Part shown: positions 1-39,828 of the stretch, one piece after another
Layout of the letters: each line of letters starts with the position of its first letter
Position numbering within the stretch: the stretch's first letter is position 1
NCBI GenBank assembly: GCA_017463365.1
Contig: JAFTPH010000062.1
Location: 1-39,828, forward strand
DNA length: 39,828 nt
Reading direction: 5' to 3'
Source of the DNA: Bacilli bacterium
GTDB lineage: Bacteria > Bacillota_I > Bacilli_A > ML615J-28 > CAG-313
Made by a program: the position numbers and the translations under genes
The notes under the pieces: model-generated
Databases searched by the model: none
The model's input: only the letters and a program-made list of their open reading frames with translations
What the model was told of the DNA's origin: nothing

Positions 1-138
1 AATATAAGCTTTTATCATTTTTTCTAAAAAAAGACAGTCATTTAATCATTTTGAGAGTGACATCCTTTTTTATACTCTTTTTACATTTTCTTTAAAATTT
101 TTTAATCATTTTACTTGATTATTAATAGTTAGTCTCCT
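1..138. other. AT-rich intergenic region, no gene seen
   Basis: This is the 3' flank of the minus-strand dipeptidase gene. An AAAGGAG ribosome-binding-like sequence lies right after the dipeptidase stop (minus strand, about 127-138), but the frames that follow close within a few codons. A weak GTCA/TGAC pair near 35-62, followed on the minus strand by a run of T, may act as a poor terminator. I see no convincing gene or RNA here. Confidence 0.5.
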
Positions 139-39010: not shown

Positions 39011-39496
39011 CTATTTAATAAGAATATATTCACACTTATTTGTAATTCTTCCATGTAGTTCAACATTCTTTTGAAGTATTTTTAATTTAAAGCCTAATCG
39101 TTCAACAAGTTTTCTACTATTAGCATTTGCTTCATCAATTTGTGCTGTTATATATTTTAGTTTTATTTGTTCAAAAGCATAATTTATAACAGCCTTACAA
39201 GCTTCATAAGCATAACCTTTTTTCCAATATAAAGGATTAAAATAATAAGCTATTTCTCCAGTATCATTTGGTTTAATACTTGTTATTGATACATCTCCTA
39301 TAAAAGTACCATCTTTTAACGTTACCGAAAATGAAGCTATACCTATAATTTTTAATATAAAATTTTTAAGGTCTTCTTCTTTATGAGGCATATAGGGTGA
39401 GGCAAATTCTAGAATTTTCTCATCAAGATAATAACTAATATTTTTATAATCATCCTCATTTAACTTTCTTAAAATTAATCTATCAGTCTCAATCAT
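39011..39496 (-). CDS. RimJ/RimL-type GNAT acetyltransferase
   Basis: A 161-residue acetyltransferase. The N-terminus MIETDRLILRKLNEDDY is the typical RimL-family opening, followed by GDVSITSIKPNDTGEIAYYFNPLYWKKGYAYEAC segments (the KKGYAYEA loop binds acetyl-CoA) and a C-terminal NANSRKLVERLGFK helix. Such enzymes acetylate protein N-termini or small molecules; the substrate here is open. An AGGAATT site precedes the ATG. A long inverted repeat covers its promoter area. Confidence 0.88.
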   Translation of the reverse strand: MIETDRLILRKLNEDDYKNISYYLDEKILEFASPYMPHKEEDLKNFILKIIGIASFSVTLKDGTFIGDVSITSIKPNDTGEIAYYFNPLYWKKGYAYEACKAVINYAFEQIKLKYITAQIDEANANSRKLVERLGFKLKILQKNVELHGRITNKCEYILIK

Positions 39497-39509
39497 TATT
39501 TGAATTCCT

Positions 39510-39552
39510 GGTATATTATAAATGACTCATTTAATTGTCATTATAATATACC
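39510..39552. repeat. Long inverted repeat in the GNAT promoter region
   Basis: GGTATATTATAAATGAC (39510-39526) and GTCATTATAATATACC (39537-39552) pair over 16 positions with one bulged base and a 10-base loop. Both arms contain TATAAT-like boxes. On the plus strand a run of seven T follows, giving it a terminator shape, but no plus-strand gene lies upstream. It may be an operator, or a barrier to transcription. Confidence 0.75.
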
Positions 39553-39566
39553 TTTTTTTCCTTTCT

Positions 39567-39582
39567 TTCAACATAAGTTGAA
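39567..39582. repeat. Small palindrome near the insertion-sequence boundary
   Basis: TTCAAC (39567-39572) and GTTGAA (39577-39582) form an inverted repeat with a 4-base centre. On the minus strand the TTGAA half may be part of a -35 box for the GNAT gene (TTGAAA, 17 bases, TATTAT). Confidence 0.45.
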
Positions 39583-39610
39583 TATTTTTTAAAAAATTGT
39601 TATATTAAAA

Positions 39611-39790
39611 ATGTGAATGTGGATTTGTACTCATCCTTGTGGCTTTGACTACTTTAGAAAGGTTCTCACCACACCTTACACCAAAACAATGATTAGTTAG
39701 ATGAGTCTTGAATTCGAATATTGTACCAGGTTTTGTGGTTTAAGGATCGTGGATAACACATCACAAACAAATTATGAAAGGAAGTATTAT
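39611..39790 (+). ncRNA. Candidate IS110 bridge RNA
   Basis: About 180 bases between the presumed left end and the transposase start, the place and size of the bridge RNA in IS110-group elements (established for IS621). Foldable elements: ACTCATC (39629-39635) pairs with GATGAGT (39700-39706) and encloses TGTGG (39638-39642) with CCACA (39669-39673) plus CTTT (39643-39646) with AAAG (39658-39661). A second domain pairs GTTTTGTG (39730-39737) with CACAAAC (39762-39768), one base bulged. Large internal loops remain, as needed for target and donor guides. Confidence 0.55.
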
Positions 39791-39791
39791 T

Positions 39792-39828
39792 ATGATCTTA
39801 ATTGGAATTGATATTGGTAAATCAAGCC
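39792..39828 (+). CDS. IS110-family transposase, N-terminal fragment
   Basis: The ATG at 39792 follows GAAAGGAAG (39776-39784). Twelve codons are present: MILIGIDIGKSS, then the window ends. The hydrophobic strand with GIDxxK is the first block of the RuvC-like DEDD domain of IS110 transposases (Asp7 would be the first acidic catalytic residue). Sugar kinases and ROK proteins also start with GIDIG but then have GT or GG, not GK. The structured non-coding stretch upstream supports the transposase reading. Confidence 0.7.
   Translation, partial: MILIGIDIGKSS

What the first reader, a model, noticed from the sequence alone, without database searches (positions are those of the whole stretch)
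39605..39828. IS110-type element with a visible candidate bridge RNA
A structured, composition-shifted stretch of about 180 bases precedes a transposase start with the GIDIGK block. Two nested stems with large internal loops and a second hairpin can be drawn (39629-39706 and 39730-39768). Position, size and two-domain layout match bridge RNAs of IS110-group elements, which guide programmable recombination. The fold and guides in this lineage may be undescribed.
Basis: partly seen in the sequence, partly recalled or inferred. Interest (0 to 1): 0.8.

Follow-up and report, generated by a model that had tools for sequence, protein, structure and literature searches.

The report
IS110 transposon aimed at ribosome-binding sites
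The end of this contig is the left end of an RNA-guided jumping gene (IS110 type) whose guide RNA is set to the ribosome-binding sequences just before bacterial genes, and which seems to carry a spare ribosome-binding sequence to replace the one it breaks.

Summary
It starts at 39508, not 39605. It consists of core CT, an AT-rich hairpin, an antisense Shine-Dalgarno (SD) motif, a bridge RNA (39611-39765) and the transposase start at 39792, where the contig ends inside the repeat. A covariance model built from 30 foreign copies finds the window RNA blind (66.9 bits, E 1e-11); Rfam has no such family. Close relatives (83% DNA identity) encode a complete 394-aa IS110 transposase beginning MKLVGIDIGK.

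New here: the target guides spell the host SD. Reconstructed empty sites are textbook ribosome-binding sites (ggAGgataaaATG), 48 of 60 copies sit 3-12 nt from the start codon of an opposite-strand gene, and right target guides match their own flank (7.0 nt versus 3.7 for other copies). In this genome one copy splits the PBP-murE operon exactly at the murE SD. Insertion destroys the SD (duplex -10.4 to -4.1 kcal/mol), but the left end carries an SD of equal strength behind a hairpin that would bring it near the start codon.

IS900 is a precedent for the target. The guide-encoded SD target across Bacilli and the portable SD look new. Nothing was tested experimentally.

The parts
39508..39828 (+). 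Left end of IS110 element A (copy A1); contig ends inside the element
   Evidence: LE boundary from relatives with different flanks and from the C45/C31 copies
39508..39509 (+). Core dinucleotide CT
   Evidence: CT at both ends of A-type copies in this genome and in relatives
39494..39507 (-). Left target: start codon (CAT = ATG of the GNAT gene 39011-39496) plus spacer; AGGAATTCAAATAATG in gene direction
   Evidence: GNAT by Pfam
39510..39552 (.). AT-rich hairpin of the left end; its left arm holds the -10 (TATATT) of the circle-junction promoter
   Evidence: Folds at -16.3 kcal/mol in antisense RNA, z -6.4; arms match their own partner better than other copies'; junction promoter
39560..39566 (-). 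Antisense Shine-Dalgarno motif AGAAAGG carried by the left end
   Evidence: Conserved next to the hairpin in nearly all copies; anti-SD duplex -10.7 kcal/mol in the window
39578..39606 (+). Candidate internal sigma-70 promoter TTGAAT-17-TATATT before the bridge RNA
   Evidence: Consensus match only, 4 found against 2.5 expected in the region
39611..39765 (+). Bridge RNA (model limits)
   Evidence: R1: 66.9 bits, E 9.7e-12
39618..39673 (+). Target-binding domain closed by TGTGG(39618-39622)/CCACA(39669-39673)
   Evidence: R1 alignment; stem kept in all 36 aligned homologues
39629..39637 (+). Left target guide ACTCATCCT (includes core CT)
   Evidence: Only 4 of 9 match this copy's left flank; sister copies C45/C31 carry ATGCCTCCT, 8/9 and 7/9
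39654..39662 (+). Right target guide TTAGAAAGG
   Evidence: Reverse complement CCTTTCTAA fits right flanks CTTTCTAA (C45 end) and CTTTCTTA (C38) of the A1-type right ends
39692..39700 (+). Left donor guide, ATTAGTTAG; TAGTTAG equals right end ATATAGTTAG
   Evidence: family statistic
39724..39730 (+). Right donor guide TACCAGG = reverse complement of left-end CCTGGTA (39507-39513)
39792..39828 (+). Start of IS110 transposase, MILIGIDIGKSS..., cut by the contig end
   Evidence: relatives L158/L160
1..132 (+). Right end of a second IS110 (element B) at the other end of the window, followed by TCTCCT (antisense SD)

Best explanation
This is the left end of an IS110-family insertion sequence. Its bridge RNA lies between the left end and the transposase and holds a target loop and a donor loop. 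The target loop is complementary to the host translation-initiation region: the SD on the right side and spacer or start codon on the left. The excised circle therefore recombines into ribosome-binding sites, always with the transposase pointing away from the gene hit. Shown by sequence: element limits, core CT/CA/TT shared by both ends, guide-flank and guide-end covariation, a promoter with 17-bp spacer across the circle junction, and an exactly reconstructed empty RBS. Inferred: transcription, excision as a circle, and recombination by the IS621 mechanism.
For: Blind model hit. Transposase relatives with PF01548 + PF02371 and NF033542 'IS110 family RNA-guided transposase', nearest solved structures ISCro4 and IS621. 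RTG versus own right flank 6.98 nt contiguous, others 3.69, n=54, p<5e-5, also within groups; LTG 8.67 versus 7.81 of 12, n=61, p<5e-5. 48/60 copies have an ATG-started ORF of at least 50 aa at 3-12 nt on the opposite strand, against 12.1% of control positions, p 3e-33. Empty sites listed. Element B: all four left ends sit 9-10 nt from a CAT and all right flanks read TCTCCT. C47(PBP)-A2-C31(MurE): joined flanks give ACAAATTAGGAGGGAAAATGTGCG, and five relatives have PBP directly before MurE. Junction promoter, 17-bp spacer in 53/57. Donor guides.
Against: The window holds only 12 codons of transposase. The right flank of the window copy lies on another contig (C38 or C45). The window's left target guide fits its own left flank in only 4 of 9 positions. 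In about a quarter of the 80 fetched loci my pattern did not extract ends or guides. Control positions come from the same flanks, and the binomial p treats related copies as independent. No transcript or transposition was observed.
Confidence: 0.94

Rival explanations
1. Extension rather than rival: the left end is a portable ribosome-binding site. Insertion separates the gene from its SD; the antisense strand of the left end supplies AGAAAGGAG plus a hairpin that loops out about 40 nt, so read-through mRNA still initiates at the old start codon (a split RBS as in T4 genes 25 and 38). This makes hits in operons of essential genes tolerable.
For: Duplex with the anti-SD: empty site -10.4, occupied -4.1, random 20-mers -3.1, left-end segment -11.0 kcal/mol. 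Fixed segment LE+28..68: -10.6 antisense, shuffled -6.0, sense strand -2.1, antisense transposase 40-mers -4.4. Hairpin cuts SD-to-ATG distance from 50.7 +/- 5.9 to 13.7 +/- 3.1 nt in 48 copies. Hairpin z mean -2.8 and arms match their own partner, p<5e-5. An insertion is seen directly before murE, a cell-wall gene that is essential in most bacteria (essentiality from general knowledge). T4 gene 25: 27 to 11 nt (PMC3014915).
Against: 13.7 nt is longer than the optimum and the window copy needs 20. A-type and CT-core copies keep part of the SD (AGGAGG before murE), so rescue may be unneeded there. No conserved promoter toward the gene, so read-through of 1.4 kb is assumed. Copies share ancestry, so the arm test is not independent of phylogeny. 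Not measured.
Confidence: 0.5
2. The conserved hairpin plus CCTTTCT serves DNA or transcription needs of the element (junction -10, terminator against inflowing transcription, recombinase site), and the SD likeness is incidental.
For: The left arm overlaps the junction -10, so part of the palindrome could arise from that; some copies have a T-run after the stem.
Against: No terminator-like site in the window; T-run not conserved while AGAAAGG is; placement relative to the start codon is nearly constant after hairpin removal.
Confidence: 0.4
3. SD-proximal copies are survivors: insertion is less specific and selection removed harmful ones.
For: Insertions in coding sequence would be lost (general expectation; no tool result).
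Against: Selection would not make each copy's right target guide match its own flank by 7 nt on average, nor place copies at a fixed 5-6 nt from ATG.
Confidence: 0.03
4. The palindrome 39510-39552 is a host promoter or operator repeat and the element starts near 39577, where the genome's own copies become identical.
For: C45/C31 differ from the window left of 39577 but not from 39577 to 39630; a solo palindrome without bridge RNA exists in G011.
Against: The palindrome position is part of the left end in relatives with unrelated flanks; the donor guide TACCAGG pairs with 39507-39513; the pattern occurs in this genome only at the element.
Confidence: 0.02
5. The ORF is a sugar kinase or other ASKHA protein.
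For: GIDIG also starts such proteins (general knowledge).
Against: Relatives at 83% DNA identity across bridge RNA and start codon continue as IS110 transposase.
Confidence: 0.01

Closest known systems
IS621 (E. coli) and bridge RNA IS110 group, Durrant et al. 2024 (PMC11208160)
   Same: DEDD + Tnp_20 transposase, bridge RNA in the left end, LTG/RTG/LDG/RDG with the same strand rules, CT core, promoter across the RE-LE junction
   Different: IS621 targets REP-type repeats; here the SD/start region. No separate 5' stem-loop was found; a helix joins the 5' and 3' ends instead. Cores CA and TT also occur. Left end carries a hairpin and antisense SD
IS900 of Mycobacterium avium subsp. paratuberculosis (IS110 family; Doran 1997 title, motif CATGNNNNNNTCTCCTT in PMC8141618)
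   Same: Same target and orientation: start codon on the left, antisense SD on the right
   Different: Different lineage; no bridge-RNA account of its target found in the held library; no antisense hed-like ORF of 60 aa or more in element B
seekRNA elements ISEc11, ISEc21 (PMC11187229)
   Same: RNA-selected target sites in the IS1111/IS110 group
   Different: Other targets; shorter RNAs (58-82 nt tested)
Split ribosome-binding sites of phage T4 genes 25 and 38 (PMC3014915)
   Same: Hairpin between SD and AUG shortens the working distance
   Different: There fixed in one gene; here (inferred) carried by a mobile element

Membership tests
[quoted passage not shown]
   Window has 12 codons only (GIDIGK). 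Met in close relatives L158/L160 and in element B
IS110 family | C-terminal Transposase_20 domain (PF02371) | tested here: inconclusive
   Outside the window; met in relatives
IS110 family | Scarless insertion at a core dinucleotide, no target duplication | tested here: met
   Core equal at both ends (CT/CA/TT); PBP-murE site rejoins as an intact RBS
Bridge RNA IS110 | Structured RNA in the left end with target and donor loops | tested here: met
   R1 hit; consensus structure with changes on both sides kept at 9 of 18 pairs
Bridge RNA IS110 | Target guides match insertion-site flanks | tested here: met
   for the family; window RTG fits A1 right flanks, window LTG weak (4/9)
Bridge RNA IS110 | Donor guides match element ends | tested here: met
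   TACCAGG / CCTGGTA in the window
Bridge RNA IS110 | Promoter formed across the circle junction | tested here: met
   Sequence only: 17-bp spacer in 53/57, mean 10.4/12
Bridge RNA IS110 | RNA is expressed and bound by the recombinase | not testable with these tools
   Needs RNA and protein
IS621-type bridge RNA | Separate 5' stem-loop before the two loops | tested here: not met
   Consensus shows a 5'-3' closing helix instead
IS900-like targeting | Inserts between start codon and SD, fixed orientation | tested here: met
   IS900 motif from PMC8141618
IS900 | hed antisense ORF | tested here: not met
   No antisense ORF of 60 aa or more inside element B; not readable for element A

The most novel reading that the evidence does not exclude
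A widespread IS110 lineage uses bridge RNAs programmed with the Shine-Dalgarno consensus to enter ribosome-binding sites, and pays for the damage by carrying a portable split ribosome-binding site (antisense SD plus bridging hairpin) in its left end, so that it can sit inside operons of essential genes without silencing them.
Probability: 0.5. Interest if true: 0.78.

Novelty: new variant of a known kind. Interest (0 to 1): 0.62.

Why it matters
It shows what a guide-RNA transposon can choose as a target: not a rare repeat but the ribosome-binding site found before most genes. The left end suggests how such an element avoids killing its host. It would also explain in molecular terms the old IS900 rule (inserts at translation starts), and it offers natural CT, CA and TT core systems with many guide-target pairs for testing bridge-RNA rules.

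Tried and rejected
Element starting at 39577 with the palindrome as host operator: rejected by relatives. Sugar kinase: rejected. Single-sequence folding of the RNA: uninformative (z 0.31). Rfam: nothing, only a sub-threshold chance hit. First fixed-register test of the left guide mixed subfamilies and was replaced by a best-register permutation. First pattern for A's right end failed because its spacing differs; solved with relatives. Plasmid and viral searches found nothing. A host-directed promoter in the left end common to all copies: not found by reading the left ends; the window scan finds about chance level.

Full report
What is there. The window is contig C53 of a 1.74-Mb low-GC genome in 65 contigs. 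One member of its GTDB family in the held set (G008) carries a locus on a contig of the same length (103,666 b) as 'Bacilli bacterium RGIG2093', so the host is an uncultured bacterium of the Bacilli. The contig stops 37 bases into an ORF that opens MILIGIDIGKSS. Two other contigs, C45 and C31, begin inside the same element and share exactly 141 bases before diverging, which looks like an assembly-graph branch at k=141 (inference). The element is thus a collapsed repeat.

Limits. With 80 homologous loci fetched by transposase, plus closer relatives found by DNA, the element has a uniform layout. It runs core, then [CTG]GTATAAT-like -10, AT-rich hairpin, CCTTTCT, bridge RNA, transposase, and right end TTGACT...ATAGTTAG, core. 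In the window the core CT is 39508-39509. Close relatives L158/L167 are 83% identical over the bridge RNA and transposase start, and continue as a 394-aa protein MKLVGIDIGKNRHFF... with PF01548 and PF02371, above the NCBIfam cut-off for 'IS110 family RNA-guided transposase'; the nearest solved chains are ISCro4 and IS621 transposases.

The RNA. A model from 30 bridge RNAs, none from the window's family, hits the window at 39611-39765 with 66.9 bits. Across 43 genomes of the order the model finds seven places in six genomes, nearly all with an IS110 transposase beside them. The consensus has a 5'-3' closing helix (GCAC/GUGC, with changes on both sides), the TGTGG/CCACA stem of the target domain, an apical CAG/CUG hairpin and an AACG/CGUU donor hairpin.

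Guides and target. The right target guide matches the copy's own right flank over 6.98 contiguous nt on average, other copies' flanks over 3.69 (n=54, p<5e-5; also within flank classes); the left guide scores 8.67 against 7.81 of 12 (n=61, p<5e-5). Flanks are not inherited with the element, so this test is robust to relatedness. Donor guides and hairpin arms also match their own partners, but there both partners are inherited together, so those p values overstate the evidence. Joined flanks give ribosome-binding sites: ggAGgataaaATG for CT cores, gagaTGatataATG for CA cores, gagaAA for TT cores. In 48 of 60 copies an ATG-started ORF lies 3-12 nt away on the opposite strand (control 12.1%).

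In this genome. Element A occurs in two versions. A1 (window) carries right guide TTAGAAAGG; the right ends of one sequence variant (C38, C45 end) are followed by CTTTCT. A2 (C45 start, C31) has a different left guide, ATGCCTCCT, matching its left targets in 8/9 and 7/9; the other right-end variant (C47, C48) is followed by CTAATTT. Assigning the right-end variants to A1 and A2 is an inference from guide fit. C47 ends in a penicillin-binding-protein gene and C31 starts with murE; in five relatives these genes are adjacent, and the rejoined site reads ACAAATTAGGAGGGAAAATGTGCG: PBP stop codon, SD, murE start. Element B has four left ends, all 9-10 nt from a CAT, and five right ends, all followed by TCTCCT or ending in it, one of them the first 132 bases of the window.

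Expression. A sigma-70-like promoter with 17-bp spacer forms across the circle junction in 53 of 57 copies, as reported for IS621 (PMC11208160). This is sequence evidence only.

A portable ribosome-binding site? Pairing with the anti-SD falls from -10.4 kcal/mol at the empty site to -4.1 at the occupied one; random 20-mers give -3.1. A fixed segment of the left end, read in the host gene's direction, gives -10.6 to -11.0, against -6.0 shuffled, -2.1 on the other strand and -4.4 in antisense transposase. Between it and the start codon lies a hairpin that would reduce the distance from 50.7 +/- 5.9 to 13.7 +/- 3.1 nt. Phage T4 genes 25 and 38 use this arrangement (27 to 11 and 22 to 5 nt; PMC3014915). 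I put this at about 0.5: the geometry and conservation are striking, the distance is long, some copies keep a partial SD, and nothing was measured.

Known or new. IS900, also IS110 family, inserts at CATGNNNNNNTCTCCTT and was described in 1997 as targeting translation initiation signals (PMC8141618), so the target class is not new. I found no paper in the held library that links bridge RNA to the SD or to IS900; the library misses most subscription papers and preprints. The RNA fold differs from IS621's published description in lacking a separate 5' stem-loop.

Noticed in passing
window 1-138: Right end of a second IS110 (element B) followed by TCTCCT; the gene before it (membrane-dipeptidase-like by eye, 139-1140 minus) stops just before AAGGAGA. 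The window is thus bounded by two different SD-seeking IS110s.
   Followed up: yes
L155 1300-1720 (G013:C4): Left end plus bridge RNA with no transposase, apparently joined near a right flank TCACTCC: a possible non-autonomous, MITE-like derivative that keeps its bridge RNA.
   Followed up: partly
L007 1500-1590 (G011:C9): Solo left-end-like palindrome with AAGAAAGG before a lipoprotein-like gene, no bridge RNA; possible remnant left serving as leader of that gene.
   Followed up: no
L006 (G000:C45 25.6 kb), L026: A second, more distant IS110-type transposase group in the same order; model R1 does not match near it.
   Followed up: no
L024/L033: Copy with an in-frame stop in the transposase, sitting between two CutA-like genes (by eye).
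   Followed up: no
L158-L169 (families f14, f19): Close relatives of element A occur in distant families of the class with conserved left ends, suggesting horizontal spread.
   Followed up: partly
L158 1693-2874: Middle of the transposase weakly resembles the Nop domain of C/D-box RNP proteins (Pfam E 7e-4, below cut-off; NCBIfam aNOP56 E 7e-6, below cut-off).
   Followed up: no
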